A stretch of 64,000 bases of DNA from an uncultured Bacteroidales bacterium. GTDB lineage: Bacteria > Bacteroidota > Bacteroidia > Bacteroidales > P3. The stretch covers positions 62,001 to 126,000 of the forward strand of contig CAMUZR010000007.1 of assembly GCA_947165255.1 (NCBI GenBank), given 5' to 3'. Below the pieces are notes generated by a model, which saw only the letters and a list, made by a program, of their open reading frames with translations, searched no databases and was not told the DNA's origin. Made by a program: the position numbers and the translations under genes. Positions 9,284 to 31,157 of this stretch are shown in pieces. Within the stretch, counting starts at the first letter, position 1; each line of letters starts with the position of its first letter.

Positions 9284-9303
9284 TTAAATAGGAGTAAAGG
9301 ATT

Positions 9304-9681
9304 TTGGAAAGTACCCGTCAGCAAAAAATTTCGCGTCTCATTCAACAGGATTTAGGCGACATTTTCCTGCGTGAGATGAAACCGGTGTTGGGCAATTCTC
9401 TCATCACTGTCACCGGAGTGCGCATCTCGCCCGACCTATCCATTGCCCGCGTCCATGTCAGTATCATGCCGATTGGCGACATACCTGCCCAAGGCGGCGA
9501 ACCCGCTAAGCCTGCCACTAAGCAGGGCATAATAGACGCTATACTCGCCCATGCCTCCGATATACGTCGCCGTTTAGGTAACCGCGAGGCCAAGCAGTTG
9601 CGGATCATTCCACAGCTCGACTATTACTTGGACGACACCCTCGACTATGTAGAGAAGATTGATAGACTGCTGAAGCAGTAA
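9304..9681 (+). CDS. rbfA: 30S ribosome-binding factor RbfA
   Basis: A 125-residue RbfA, the single-KH-domain protein that binds the 30S subunit late in maturation and helps 16S rRNA 5'-end processing and cold adaptation. Matching features are RQQKISRLIQQDLGDIF at the N-terminus, VTGVRISPDLSIARVHVSI in the middle and LRIIPQLDYYLDDTLDY at the C-terminus. There is an insert of about 15 residues (AQGGEPAKPATKQG) in a loop. The start is TTG at 9304, preceded by a GGAGTAAAGGA purine tract; there is no in-frame ATG before the conserved region. It is followed by a LolE-type permease gene 36 bp later. Confidence 0.92.
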   Translation: MESTRQQKISRLIQQDLGDIFLREMKPVLGNSLITVTGVRISPDLSIARVHVSIMPIGDIPAQGGEPAKPATKQGIIDAILAHASDIRRRLGNREAKQLRIIPQLDYYLDDTLDYVEKIDRLLKQ

Positions 9682-27469: not shown

Positions 27470-30247
27470 ATGAAAACGATAAAAAAAGGACTTGCACTAC
27501 TGATTGTAGCCATTCTTTTTGCAGGGACGGCCTCGGCACAGAGCAGTGTCGCTGCCACCGCCGACCAGCAGTTTCAGAACAAGCAGTACATCCTGGCATT
27601 GGAGAGTTACCAAAAGGCATACGACCGGGTGGGTAGTAACAAGGCTGAGAAAAACCGCATCTATTTCCAGATGGGCGAATGCTACCGCCTGATGTATAAC
27701 TACCCCAAGGCACAGCACACTTACCGCCGCCTCATTCAGGCTGGATACTACTCGGTGGAGCCTAAGATTTATTTCTATATGGCCGAAATGTGCCGTTTCA
27801 ACGGCGAGTTTGACGATGCCGACGGCTACTACGATAAGTTCTTGCAGCTGGTGCCTAACGACAAGTTGGCACTCTCGCGCAAGAAATCGCTTATTGATGT
27901 TACCCGCTGGGCTGCCGACCGTAGCCGCCACGTGATTACCAAGTTGGTAGATTGGAATACCGATTATAACGACTGGTCGCCCCGTTTTATGGGGGATGAT
28001 ACCAATACGCTGGTATTTACCTCTTCGCGCTATGGCACTGACGAGGAGGGACAGGATGTTTGGACCGGTCAGAATTTCTCGTCGTTCTACATGGTTTATA
28101 AGGACCGTAACGAGCGTTGGACTGACGTGCCCACGCCTTTCGACCAGTCGGGGAAAATCAACACTTCTAATAACGAAGGTGAGGCCTGCTTCTCGCCCGA
28201 CGGCATGACTATCTATTTCACCCGTTGCGACATTGTGGAGCATGAGAGCCACGGATGCGCCATTTACACTTCTACCAAAGCCGCGGCTGTCGACAAGAAG
28301 AAAAAGACTGCCAAGAAGGCTAAGGCCAGCACTTCTTCCAAGAAGACCACAAAGAAGGGTAAGAATAGCACAGACAACGACAAGGACGATAAGAAAGGCA
28401 AAAAGGGCAAGGATGCTAAGGACGAGGCTCCAGAGGAAGAGGAACTGGCTCCTGGCGAATGGGCTACCCCTGTCAAGATTGACCTCGGCGACACGAATTA
28501 TAACTACCTCTATCCTGCTATCTCTTCCGACGGCCTAACGCTCTATTTCTGTTCCGATATGCCGGGCGGAGAGGGCGATTACGACATTTGGAAGAGCACA
28601 CGCGCCTCCCTGGCTGACGACTTTGGTAAGCCAGTCAACATGGGAACACCCGTCAACACTCCCGGCCGTGAGGCTTTCCCCGTCTTGCGCGACGACTCGA
28701 CGATGTATTTCTCCTCCAATGGCCTCCCCGGCATCGGCGGTTATGACCTTTTCAAGACTACCATTGGCAAGCGCATTTGCTCCAAGCCCCAGAACCTCGG
28801 TGTGCCCATTAACTCTTCTTACGACGAGATGACGATTATTTATTATCCCGAGAATGAGGACAACCCCATGATGGAGCGTGGCTATTTCTCCTCCAACCGT
28901 CCCTTTGAAGACCCCCTGAACAAGAATACCGATAAGAAGGGCAAGAAGATTCCGCTGCCCACTATGAACCTTTTCTCCTTCCAGCTGCCTCCGCTGTTGT
29001 ATACCATTGAGGGTACTGTTCGCGACGAGAAGTCGATGCAGCTTATCAAGGGCGCTAAGGTCAAAATCGTCGGTTCTGACGGTTCTGAGGCTGAGACCTA
29101 CACCGACAAGAAAGGCCACTATAAATTTAACAACAGCCAGGTGCACGGCCAGGTGGTATACAAGATGTACCTCTCCAAGGTCGACTACTTCAGCTTGGAA
29201 GGCTCGGAGAGCACCAAAGGCTACACTGTCGACAAAGACATTGTCCACGACTACCGAATGGAACCTGTGCCCCAGCAGCCTGTGGTCCTGCCCGAAATCC
29301 GCTACGACCTCAGCAAATGGGATATCAAGGAGGAATTTATGGACTCTCTTATGGATCTCTACCTTGTGATGGTAAACAACCCCAGCATCGTGGTGGAAAT
29401 CCGTGCCCATACCGACTGCCGTCCCTATCTTGGCCTCACCAATGACACCCTCTCGCAGCGTCGTGCGCAAAGCGTGGTTGACTATCTTGCCAGCCGCGGC
29501 ATCGAGCGCGACCGTCTTGTGGCCAAGGGCTACGCCGATCGCGTCCCCCGCACTCTTGACCGCGATGTTTATATCGAAGTAGGTGGCAAACCTTATATCT
29601 TCTCGGCAGGCACAACGCTCGACTGCGACTATATTGCCGACCTGCCCACCCCCGAGCATCAGGAGGCCGCCCACCAGCTCAACCGCCGTATTGAGTTCCT
29701 CGTGCTCCGTTCCGACTATGTCCGCAAGAATGTGGTTAATTCTTTGGCCGACTCTACTATTGCCAAACAGAACGAGGACGGCACTTATATCGATTTAGTG
29801 AATGCCCCCGTCGACTCTAATTTCAGAGACGTGGCCGTAATCATCCACGACGAAAGCAGCATTCCCGTCACCATGATAAACACCCAGAAAGGCGAGGTCC
29901 AGGCCATCATCAACGGACAGCAGGTGCCCATGCTTATCGACGAGCGCTTCAAGGAGCCTATCGCTATCTCCTGGGAGGAGGCCATGAACATGCTCTATCA
30001 ACGCCGTATCAATAAAGAGGATTTTCCCGACCGCGACAACGCTTTCGACCCCGAAGGCAACATCCTTGACAAGGCTAAACTGGTATTCAAAGAAATCCAG
30101 ATTGGTCAGCATCACCAACACAATGTGGAGGTTATCGTGGTTAAGGGTATCGACTATAAGTTCATAATCAACCGTTCTGCTTTAGCGGACTTCGGCGAGT
30201 ACGAGTTCGATAAGCAGCTTGGCAAACTCTACTTCTTAGACGACTAA
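27470..30247 (+). CDS. PorE-like OmpA-family protein (TPR, beta-propeller, CRD, OmpA, extra C-terminal domain)
   Basis: A 925-residue exported protein (signal peptide to about residue 23, TASA-QSS; no lipobox Cys). Domains in order: TPR-like helices (about 28-140), PD40/WD40-like propeller strands (about 160-500, with SSDGLTLYFCSDMPGG repeats), a carboxypeptidase-regulatory-like fold (about 512-595), and an OmpA peptidoglycan-binding domain (about 610-765, EIRAHTDCRP and SQRRAQSVVDYL). This is the layout of T9SS PorE. Unusual parts are a Lys-rich stretch at 263-323 interrupting the propeller and a C-terminal domain at about 795-925 that reads like a retropepsin fold with INGQQVPMLIDERF where D-T/S-G is expected (D824). 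Anchoring or T9SS role inferred. Confidence 0.82.
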   Translation: MKTIKKGLALLIVAILFAGTASAQSSVAATADQQFQNKQYILALESYQKAYDRVGSNKAEKNRIYFQMGECYRLMYNYPKAQHTYRRLIQAGYYSVEPKIYFYMAEMCRFNGEFDDADGYYDKFLQLVPNDKLALSRKKSLIDVTRWAADRSRHVITKLVDWNTDYNDWSPRFMGDDTNTLVFTSSRYGTDEEGQDVWTGQNFSSFYMVYKDRNERWTDVPTPFDQSGKINTSNNEGEACFSPDGMTIYFTRCDIVEHESHGCAIYTSTKAAAVDKKKKTAKKAKASTSSKKTTKKGKNSTDNDKDDKKGKKGKDAKDEAPEEEELAPGEWATPVKIDLGDTNYNYLYPAISSDGLTLYFCSDMPGGEGDYDIWKSTRASLADDFGKPVNMGTPVNTPGREAFPVLRDDSTMYFSSNGLPGIGGYDLFKTTIGKRICSKPQNLGVPINSSYDEMTIIYYPENEDNPMMERGYFSSNRPFEDPLNKNTDKKGKKIPLPTMNLFSFQLPPLLYTIEGTVRDEKSMQLIKGAKVKIVGSDGSEAETYTDKKGHYKFNNSQVHGQVVYKMYLSKVDYFSLEGSESTKGYTVDKDIVHDYRMEPVPQQPVVLPEIRYDLSKWDIKEEFMDSLMDLYLVMVNNPSIVVEIRAHTDCRPYLGLTNDTLSQRRAQSVVDYLASRGIERDRLVAKGYADRVPRTLDRDVYIEVGGKPYIFSAGTTLDCDYIADLPTPEHQEAAHQLNRRIEFLVLRSDYVRKNVVNSLADSTIAKQNEDGTYIDLVNAPVDSNFRDVAVIIHDESSIPVTMINTQKGEVQAIINGQQVPMLIDERFKEPIAISWEEAMNMLYQRRINKEDFPDRDNAFDPEGNILDKAKLVFKEIQIGQHHQHNVEVIVVKGIDYKFIINRSALADFGEYEFDKQLGKLYFLDD

Positions 30248-31157
30248 GTTAATAACAATAACAGGACCCACGGCTTGTGGTAAGACGAGTCTCGCCGCCG
30301 AACTGGCTTTCCAGCTCGGCGGTGAGATTATTAGTGCCGACTCACGGCAGGTGTTTCGCGGCATGGACATCGGCACTGGAAAAGACCTAGCCGACTACCA
30401 TATCCACGGAACGGACATACCCTACCATCTTATCGACATTCACGACGCGGGCTATGAGTACAATGTCTATCAGTTCCAAAACGACTTCATCCGTGCTTTC
30501 GACGACATTGTCTCGCGCGGGAGTCAGCCGATCCTCTGCGGTGGCACGGGCATGTATATAGAGGCTGTTGTCAAAGGCTACCAGTTGGCCGATGCCCCCA
30601 TCGACCCCGACTTCCGCAAACGCATGGAGGCCTTCACCGACGAGGAGCTCATCGCCCGTCTGGCCTCACTTATCAAGCTCCACAACCACACCGATACCGA
30701 AACCCGCGACCGTCTTCTGCGCGCCCTAGAGATTCAGGAATACCATCTCCAGCACCCCGACGAGTACCCCCACATGCCCGAGATGGAACATCTCATAATA
30801 GGAGTCAGATTCCCCCGTGAAATTGTAGTCGAGCGCATTGGCATCCGCCTACGCCAGCGGTTGCAGGAAGGCATGATAGAAGAGGTGAAGGCGCTTCTTG
30901 AGCAGGGGGTCCCGGAGGAACGACTCCTCCGTTACGGATTAGAGTACAGACATGTCACCCGCTATCTGCGCGGTGAGTGCAGCTACGATGAAATGTACGA
31001 AAACCTCTACACCGACATCCGTCGTTTCTCCAAGCGCCAAATGACCTGGTTTCGTCGCATGGAACGCCAAGGCATCCCCATCCATTGGATTGACGGCACC
31101 CAACCTCTCCAAACTAGGGTTGCCGAAGTTATTGCTCTTTTCCGTTCAGAGTGTTAA
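30240..31157 (+). CDS. miaA: tRNA dimethylallyltransferase MiaA with a non-canonical ACG start
   Basis: MiaA adds a dimethylallyl group to A37 of tRNAs reading codons that begin with U. The P-loop GPTACGKT is at residues 9-16, then IISADSRQVFRGMDIGTGK (substrate and Mg site) and a complete C-terminal part (RLLRYGLEYRHV, KRQMTWFRRM). An in-frame TAG at 30237-30239 closes the frame upstream, and there is no ATG, GTG or TTG before the P-loop; the first ATG (30351) would delete it. The codons after the stop read ACG ACT AAG TTA ATA, giving [M]TKLITITGPT, a perfect family N-terminus if ACG initiates. It overlaps the upstream gene's end. ATA at 30252 is the alternative. Confidence 0.85.
   Translation, partial: TTKLITITGPTACGKTSLAAELAFQLGGEIISADSRQVFRGMDIGTGKDLADYHIHGTDIPYHLIDIHDAGYEYNVYQFQNDFIRAFDDIVSRGSQPILCGGTGMYIEAVVKGYQLADAPIDPDFRKRMEAFTDEELIARLASLIKLHNHTDTETRDRLLRALEIQEYHLQHPDEYPHMPEMEHLIIGVRFPREIVVERIGIRLRQRLQEGMIEEVKALLEQGVPEERLLRYGLEYRHVTRYLRGECSYDEMYENLYTDIRRFSKRQMTWFRRMERQGIPIHWIDGTQPLQTRVAEVIALFRSEC

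What the first reader, a model, noticed from the sequence alone, without database searches (positions are those of the whole stretch)
30230..30290. miaA appears to have lost its ATG: an ACG sits where a silent change in the overlapping gene would remove it
Seen directly: in the miaA frame there is a TAG at 30237-30239, then ACG ACT AAG TTA ATA ACA ATA ACA GGA leading into the P-loop; no ATG, GTG or TTG precedes it. The first ATG (30351) would delete the P-loop. The bases 30239-30244 are two Asp codons (GAC GAC) of the upstream gene. If the first were GAT, also Asp, the miaA frame would begin ATG ACT AAG. So one synonymous T-to-C change in the overlap removes the start codon. Either ACG (or ATA at 30252) initiates, giving low MiaA levels, or this strain is changed, or it is a sequencing error.
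Basis: partly seen in the sequence, partly recalled or inferred. Interest (0 to 1): 0.7.

Follow-up and report, generated by a model that had tools for sequence, protein, structure and literature searches.

The report
Conserved ACG start codon in miaA
In a group of related gut bacteria, a tRNA-modification gene seems to begin with ACG instead of ATG, and its sister copy and a DNA-repair gene also begin with unusual codons, so the odd start is an old, shared trait and not an error.

Summary
In detail: in the miaA frame TAG (30237-30239) is followed by ACG (30240-30242), with no ATG/GTG/TTG before the P-loop. One slip: 30351 is GTG; the first ATG is 30363. It is no error or strain quirk. 22 of 24 species in one clade carry ACG at this place, 8 nt inside the end of the upstream OmpA/PorE-like gene. 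In 39 of 81 other genus rows the site reads GATG, an ATG start at the same overlap. The codon before ACG drifts (9 TTG, 9 TCG, 4 TAG). The gene is under purifying selection. This genome's second miaA and recG also lack canonical starts; the clade has AUC/AUA there in 16 of 23 and 21 of 23. In 112 ortholog pairs ATG use equals the outgroups' (97 and 97), so initiation is not loose genome-wide. Best reading: ACG is a real, weak start reached by termination-reinitiation, one of a small near-cognate set (both miaA genes, recG, infC). That ACG initiates, and that output is low, are inferred.

The parts
27470..30247 (+). Upstream gene, 925 aa, with TPR, PD40, carboxypeptidase-regulatory-like and OmpA domains (PorE-like); ends TTA GAC GAC TAA
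   Evidence: (NF052230 427.5 bits, below its cut-off of 600)
30237..30239 (+). In-frame TAG just before the miaA ACG; excludes a start further upstream in this genome
   Evidence: TAG at this place in 4 of 24 clade rows
30239..30241 (+). Asp codon GAC of the upstream gene; its third base is the middle base of ACG
   Evidence: GAC in all 22 of the 23 overlap rows that have Asp here
30240..30242 (+). ACG, proposed start codon of miaA
30245..30247 (+). TAA stop of the upstream gene; miaA read from ACG overlaps that gene by 8 nt
30240..31157 (+). miaA (first paralog), 305 aa from ACG, stop included in the end coordinate
   Evidence: TIGR00174 176.7 bits over cut-off 148.65; PF01715 198.1 bits over 23.6; aligned to MiaA chain 2qgn from query residue 3 to chain residue 4
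30264..30287 (+). P-loop GPTACGKT
30351..30353 (+). GTG, first ATG/GTG/TTG after the ACG; would give a 268-aa protein without the P-loop

Best explanation
The ACG at 30240 is the real start codon of miaA. It most likely arose once, at the base of a clade of at least 24 species, when the overlapping Asp codon of the upstream gene went from GAT to GAC, and it has been kept since. Ribosomes that finish the OmpA/PorE-like gene at TAA 30245 are already beside the ACG, so initiator tRNA can be placed on this near-cognate codon by termination-reinitiation, without a Shine-Dalgarno site. Output is expected to be low and tied to translation of the upstream gene. The same habit (AUC or AUA, mostly close to an upstream stop) is kept at the second miaA and at recG, so the clade probably holds MiaA low by weak, perhaps IF3-sensitive, start codons. 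Shown here: position, conservation, overlap, purifying selection, no canonical alternative in the TAG rows, no genome-wide shift. Inferred: that ACG initiates, reinitiation, low yield, IF3 dependence.
For: ACG in 22 of 24 clade rows, 8 nt into the upstream gene's end; clade support 100/96; 39 of 81 other rows GATG at the same overlap. The codon before ACG is TTG 9, TCG 9, TAG 4 of 22, so 13 of 22 have no canonical codon next to it. dN 0.018-0.102 against dS 0.41 to saturated in ten chosen pairs. Read from ACG the N-terminus fits solved MiaA chains. Both departures have a canonical codon: G081 ATG with the overlap lost, G104 TTG AAG. Second miaA: ATC/ATA in 16 of 23, 10 of them with an in-frame stop in view and no canonical codon after it; recG: ATC/ATA in 21 of 23, 14 of them likewise. 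No 'M[TNIS]K[LI]' N-terminus, as ATG at the site would give, among 126 database relatives. For E. coli, reinitiation without an upstream SD, its inhibition by excess IF3, and random non-canonical starts downstream of the stop when RRF is inactive are reported (PMC2268962, passages). In S. aureus three non-canonical starts (cvfC1 AUU, ccpN AUA, citZ AUA) gave about 10% of AUG in poor medium, up to 30% for ccpN in rich medium (PMC13009471, section 10).
Against: No expression or N-terminal data. The wobble test is weak: 2 of the 35 other Asp columns are also all GAC, so constant C alone would be seen by chance about 6% of the time. Nine of 22 ACG rows have TTG directly upstream, and rows without the TAG can have distant canonical codons in the open frame inside the upstream gene (database entries such as P0119 start there). 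Database relatives show further departures at the site: 9 with Lys and 2 with Leu of 113 that match the motif (36 more are the displaced G081 type). In this genome the ATC of the second miaA lies 182 nt after the stop of the upstream cca-like gene, which does not suit simple coupling. ATG at a displaced start in G081 shows that a strong start is tolerated.
Confidence: 0.72

Rival explanations
1. ACG is the start, but it is only tolerated, not selected: coupling to a well-translated upstream gene makes start-codon identity nearly irrelevant, and the change drifted in.
For: Wobble conservation is only borderline. Three other genus rows (L044, L093, L096 of 81) have no ATG/GTG/TTG between the last in-frame stop and the P-loop, and L100 has its own ACG at the overlap, so miaA starts are lost repeatedly.
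Against: The second miaA and recG also hold AUC/AUA over 16 of 23 and 21 of 23 species, while 112 ortholog pairs show no general loosening. No ATG at the site in 22 species although one silent transition would make it.
Confidence: 0.3
2. Another codon is the real start (TTG just upstream, or CTG, ATA, ATT downstream) and ACG is incidental.
For: TTG precedes ACG in 9 of 22 rows. Database entries begin at the codon before the ACG site, at what the matching loci show to be ATT or CTG, or about 40 residues in (P0121, no P-loop).
Against: None of these codons is conserved; 4 rows have TAG in place of TTG and 9 have TCG. A start at the later Ile codon would cut into the first strand of the P-loop fold (fold recalled).
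Confidence: 0.1
3. A +1 ribosomal frameshift near the end of the upstream gene makes a fusion, so miaA needs no start of its own.
For: The frames overlap and differ by +1.
Against: No constant slippery stretch: the codon before GAC is TTA, TTT, CTT, TTC or CTC. A fusion would join a protein of envelope type to a tRNA enzyme. The second miaA and recG mostly have in-frame stops or short spacers before the proposed start instead.
Confidence: 0.03
4. C-to-U RNA editing turns ACG into AUG, as known (recalled) for some chloroplast genes.
For: ACG is a codon that such editing would turn into AUG; it is kept in 22 of 24.
Against: AUC and AUA at the second miaA and recG cannot become AUG by C-to-U editing.
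Confidence: 0.02
5. miaA is decaying because a second miaA exists.
For: A second copy is present in this genome.
Against: No inner stop in the 30 best matches, conserved motifs, dN far below dS. The second copy lacks a canonical start too.
Confidence: 0.02
6. Sequencing or assembly error.
For: The named relatives are metagenome assemblies.
Against: The same base in 22 of 24 species, one genome each.
Confidence: 0.01

Closest known systems
infC (IF3) with a non-AUG start (E. coli AUU, recalled; S. aureus AUA, PMC13009471 section 10)
   Same: Conserved near-cognate start in a chromosomal gene; infC of this genus begins with AUA in 27 of 27 parsed rows of 30 loci
   Different: infC has AGGAG upstream here; miaA has no such site and overlaps an upstream stop; ACG mismatches the initiator anticodon at the middle base
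pcnB of E. coli with an AUU start (title of Binns and Masters 2002 seen in a reference list; details recalled)
   Same: A weak start limits an enzyme that acts on RNA
   Different: AUU and one gene; here ACG and AUC, in two paralogs plus recG, across a clade
ccpN (AUA) and cvfC1 (AUU) of Staphylococcus (PMC13009471, section 10)
   Same: Conserved non-canonical starts that lower yield
   Different: An extended SD is predicted to direct them; no stop overlap is described in the section read
Translationally coupled overlapping gene pairs (PMC2268962, passages; PMC10666635, listing only)
   Same: Start a few nt from the upstream stop
   Different: Known cases use AUG as a rule (recalled)
Chloroplast ACG starts edited to AUG (recalled)
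   Same: ACG where AUG is expected
   Different: AUC/AUA at the companion genes cannot be edited to AUG by C-to-U

Membership tests
MiaA (TIGR00174 / PF01715) | Score above curated cut-off | tested here: met
   176.7 bits vs 148.65; 198.1 bits vs 23.6
MiaA (TIGR00174 / PF01715) | P-loop and full N-terminus present when read from ACG | tested here: met
   GPTACGKT; aligned from residue 3 to 2qgn residue 4
MiaA (TIGR00174 / PF01715) | Dimethylallyl transfer to A37 of tRNA | not testable with these tools
   no assay
Genes limited by a near-cognate start (infC/pcnB/ccpN class) | No AUG/GUG/UUG available as start | tested here: met
   in-frame TAG directly before ACG; the same in 4 of 22 ACG rows; 9 more have TCG and 9 have TTG there
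Genes limited by a near-cognate start (infC/pcnB/ccpN class) | Near-cognate codon conserved between species | tested here: met
   22 of 24
Genes limited by a near-cognate start (infC/pcnB/ccpN class) | Extended Shine-Dalgarno guiding the start (S. aureus cases; not a feature of every member) | tested here: not met
   no match longer than 3 nt in 24 miaA rows
Genes limited by a near-cognate start (infC/pcnB/ccpN class) | Lower yield than AUG; IF3-sensitive | not testable with these tools
   no expression data
Termination-reinitiation coupled pair | Same strand, start within a few nt of the upstream stop | tested here: met
   8-nt overlap in 23 of 24
Termination-reinitiation coupled pair | Downstream translation depends on upstream translation | not testable with these tools
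   no expression data
RNA editing of ACG to AUG | T in cDNA at the C | not testable with these tools
   no transcript data

The most novel reading that the evidence does not exclude
ACG is a natural, long-conserved start codon of a bacterial chromosomal gene, and this clade runs a small start-codon-controlled set (both miaA paralogs, recG and infC) in which IF3 level and ribosome termination upstream set the dose of tRNA A37 modification and of RecG.
Probability: 0.3. Interest if true: 0.85.

Novelty: new variant of a known kind. Interest (0 to 1): 0.7.

Why it matters
ACG is not among the start codons of NCBI table 11 (recalled), so annotation gives this gene inconsistent starts: database relatives begin at what the matching loci show to be ATT (P0058) or CTG (P0104), or about 40 residues in without the P-loop (P0121). 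If ACG initiates, it widens the set of natural bacterial start codons and ties it to termination-reinitiation. Two paralogs of one tRNA-modifying enzyme holding non-canonical starts, while 112 ortholog pairs show no such shift, would make the question 'is weak initiation selected?' directly testable, with ready comparisons in sister species that have ATG at the same base.

Tried and rejected
Genome-wide relaxation of start-codon choice: expected after the second miaA and recG turned up, not borne out. In 112 ortholog pairs ATG is used in 97 genes of G000 and 97 of the outgroups; GTG/TTG 11 and 12; 'none' 4 and 3. Of the 4 'none' rows of G000 one is miaA; by eye the other three are alignment or frame artefacts. 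A scan listed 31 candidate rows among 588 ORFs in 858 kb of G000 and 18 among 386 ORFs in 580 kb of outgroups; by eye only miaA, the second miaA and recG stood out, one short frame (G000:C1:100145-100507) stays open. The scan is blind to genes with a chance ATG/GTG/TTG nearby and did not list infC, so the true number may be higher.

Odd initiator tRNA: the CAT tRNA at L264 has the GGG:CCC anticodon stem of an initiator (recalled); nothing there explains ACG. Degraded ribosome recycling factor: frr of G000 scores 195.8 bits over a cut-off of 149.1. Special RNA structure at the start: none beyond shuffles (z 1.17 and -0.42). recG starting at an ATA that overlaps the upstream stop: possible in G000 alone, but relatives keep ATC or ATA further on.

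Faulty steps of mine: one search read minus-strand loci unturned. The motif was too strict. One search was spoiled by antisense shadow ORFs. One search picked wrong codons for some recG and second-miaA rows; searches give the tallies. In one search the open frame of 485 codons taken as upstream gene in G000 is not cca-like; the cca-like stop is 182 nt off. The site rule allowed three neighbouring codon positions.

Rows dropped: 112 of 120 genomes had a strong match to this miaA (best E 3.1e-58 or lower); 110 were fetched, not G048 and G066; 5 (L037, L040, L046, L067, L069) failed the motif search. In one search, 3 of 30 infC loci were not parsed, 1 of 30 recG loci.

Literature: the listings (8 of 8, 12 of 226, 1 of 1 and 40 of 93 papers listed) showed me no bacterial chromosomal gene starting with ACG; titles and abstract beginnings only. 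This is not proof of absence. Hecht et al. 2017 (initiation from all 64 codons) is not held.
Full report
What was checked. The sequence at 30230-30290 is as described: upstream gene ...TTA GAC GAC TAA (27470-30247), and in the miaA frame TAG ACG ACT AAG TTA ATA ACA ATA ACA, then the P-loop. The only slip is that 30351 is GTG; the first ATG is at 30363. The 305-aa reading from ACG is a MiaA by TIGR00174 and PF01715 and aligns to a solved MiaA chain from its third residue (2qgn residue 4), so ACG sits about where Met is expected.

Is it this genome only? All 120 genomes searched in its genus match the protein, 112 strongly, of which I fetched 110. On a MiaA tree of 111 rows, L003-L026 form one clade of 24 rows with support 100/96. 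Of the 24 species 22 have ACG at the same place, each 8 nt into the end of the upstream gene. The two exceptions have canonical codons: G081 has ATG with the overlap lost (upstream stop about 80 nt away), and G104 has TTG AAG.

What was there before? In 81 parsed other rows of the genus, 39 carry GATG at the same overlap, that is GAT GAx T(A/G)(A/G) with ATG as start. One species elsewhere on the tree, L100, has ACG at the homologous overlap too, but also an in-frame GTG seven codons before it. L044, L093 and L096 have no ATG/GTG/TTG between the last in-frame stop and the P-loop.

Is ACG kept by selection? The codon before it is TTG in 9, TCG in 9 and TAG in 4 of the 22 rows, so TTG is not needed. 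In ten chosen pairs dN is 0.018-0.102 while dS is 0.41 to saturated. At 36 Asp columns of the last 490 codons of the upstream gene in 23 overlap rows, 33 vary between GAC and GAT; this one is all GAC (22 of 22; the 23rd row has Glu), but so are 2 others, and mean GAC use is 0.78. That is suggestive, not decisive. Of 126 database relatives (best 120 listed of each of two searches), none begins as ATG at the site would make it. Of the 113 that match the motif, 64 have Thr at the site and 2 more have Thr one codon earlier; 36 are the G081 type, 9 have Lys and 2 have Leu there. The database is biased, since gene callers do not use ACG.

A second and third case. A scan of this genome for ORFs without a canonical start put the second miaA first: in-frame TAA, no ATG/GTG/TTG, then ATC AAA shortly before the P-loop. 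Its orthologs have ATC (15) or ATA (1) there in 16 of 23 clade rows; the other 7 have canonical codons. Of the 16, 10 have an in-frame stop in view with no canonical codon after it, 3 have a canonical codon 9 to 15 codons upstream. recG, recognised by its Pfam domains, is alike: ATC (18) or ATA (3) in 21 of 23, ATG in 2; 14 of the 21 have an in-frame stop in view and no canonical codon, 2 have TTG upstream (one only two codons away). Of 6 parsed outgroup recG rows 4 have ATG and 2 TTG. infC begins with AUA in 27 of 27 parsed rows, with AGGAG upstream; infC is a known non-AUG gene. Shine-Dalgarno matches are at most 3 nt in the 24 miaA rows; AAGGA occurs before 1 of 16 second-miaA and 2 of 21 recG near-cognate codons. 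An upstream open frame ends within -20 to +40 nt of the codon in 19 of 21 recG rows and 13 of 16 second-miaA rows, the latter 12 once G000 is corrected: there the cca-like gene (named by eye) ends 182 nt before the ATC. G081 has canonical codons at all three genes.

Is the whole genome loose? No sign of it. In 112 ortholog pairs between G000 and two outgroup genomes, ATG is used in 97 and 97. Among 588 ORFs in 858 kb of G000 only miaA, the second miaA and recG stood out by eye, and none among 386 ORFs in 580 kb of outgroups. The initiator-like tRNA has anticodon CAT, frr is ordinary, and the start has no special RNA structure.

How it probably works. Inferred: a ribosome ending at TAA 30245 stays on the mRNA and initiator tRNA is accepted on the ACG five bases before that TAA. 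Reinitiation near a stop, its inhibition by excess IF3 where there is no upstream SD, and random non-canonical starts when RRF is inactive are described for E. coli (PMC2268962, passages). Three non-canonical starts in S. aureus gave roughly a tenth of AUG yield in poor medium and up to 30% for ccpN in rich medium (PMC13009471, section 10). An N-terminomics study in E. coli mentions one ATC among upstream starts; the term ACG does not occur in its main text (PMC13245402, passages). I therefore expect low MiaA, coupled to the upstream gene.

Verdict. It is a new variant of a known kind: conserved near-cognate starts, here with ACG, stop overlap without SD, and both paralogs of one enzyme.

Noticed in passing
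L197:11143-12036 (G000:C20): Second miaA (297-codon open frame) without ATG/GTG/TTG before the P-loop; ATC kept in most clade relatives.
   Followed up: yes
L198:13873-16131 (G000:C20): recG without canonical start; ATC GAC kept in most clade relatives.
   Followed up: yes
L243 from 1429 (G000:C1): infC begins ATA GTA GCA after AGGAG; AUA in 27 of 27 parsed rows of the genus.
   Followed up: partly
L324-L353, alignment: IF3 differs between clade and outgroup rows at several columns, for example Lys in 16 of 18 clade rows where 8 of 9 outgroup rows have Ile; could bear on start-codon stringency.
   Followed up: no
L264:1500-1572: Initiator-like tRNA-Met seems, by eye, to have U opposite U at the end pair of the acceptor stem.
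   Followed up: no
L268:1501-1575: Another CAT tRNA with, by eye, an A-C mismatch next to the anticodon loop; perhaps the isoleucine AUA tRNA.
   Followed up: no
G081 (L006, L234, L286): The one clade species with canonical codons at all three genes (ATG, TTG, ATG), as if changed together.
   Followed up: no
L100 (G115); L044, L093, L096: Other genus members whose miaA start is ACG or has no ATG/GTG/TTG, away from the main clade.
   Followed up: partly
G118, G119: Two close relatives show only a weak match to this miaA but keep the second miaA; possible loss, though completeness is 72% and 85%.
   Followed up: no
15 of 119 genomes gave no infC match (among them G076, 98% complete) and 14 of 119 no frr match (among them G003, 95%); assembly gaps likely.
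   Followed up: no
A few genus members have one stop inside a miaA match (G068 in the first copy; G037, G050 and G073 in the second copy as listed).
   Followed up: no
G000:C1:100145-100507 (- strand): Short open frame without early canonical start that looks like a piece of a Cas9 C-terminus (recognised from memory).
   Followed up: no
window 9298-9681: rbfA-like gene (named by eye) appears to start with TTG where the outgroup has ATG.
   Followed up: no
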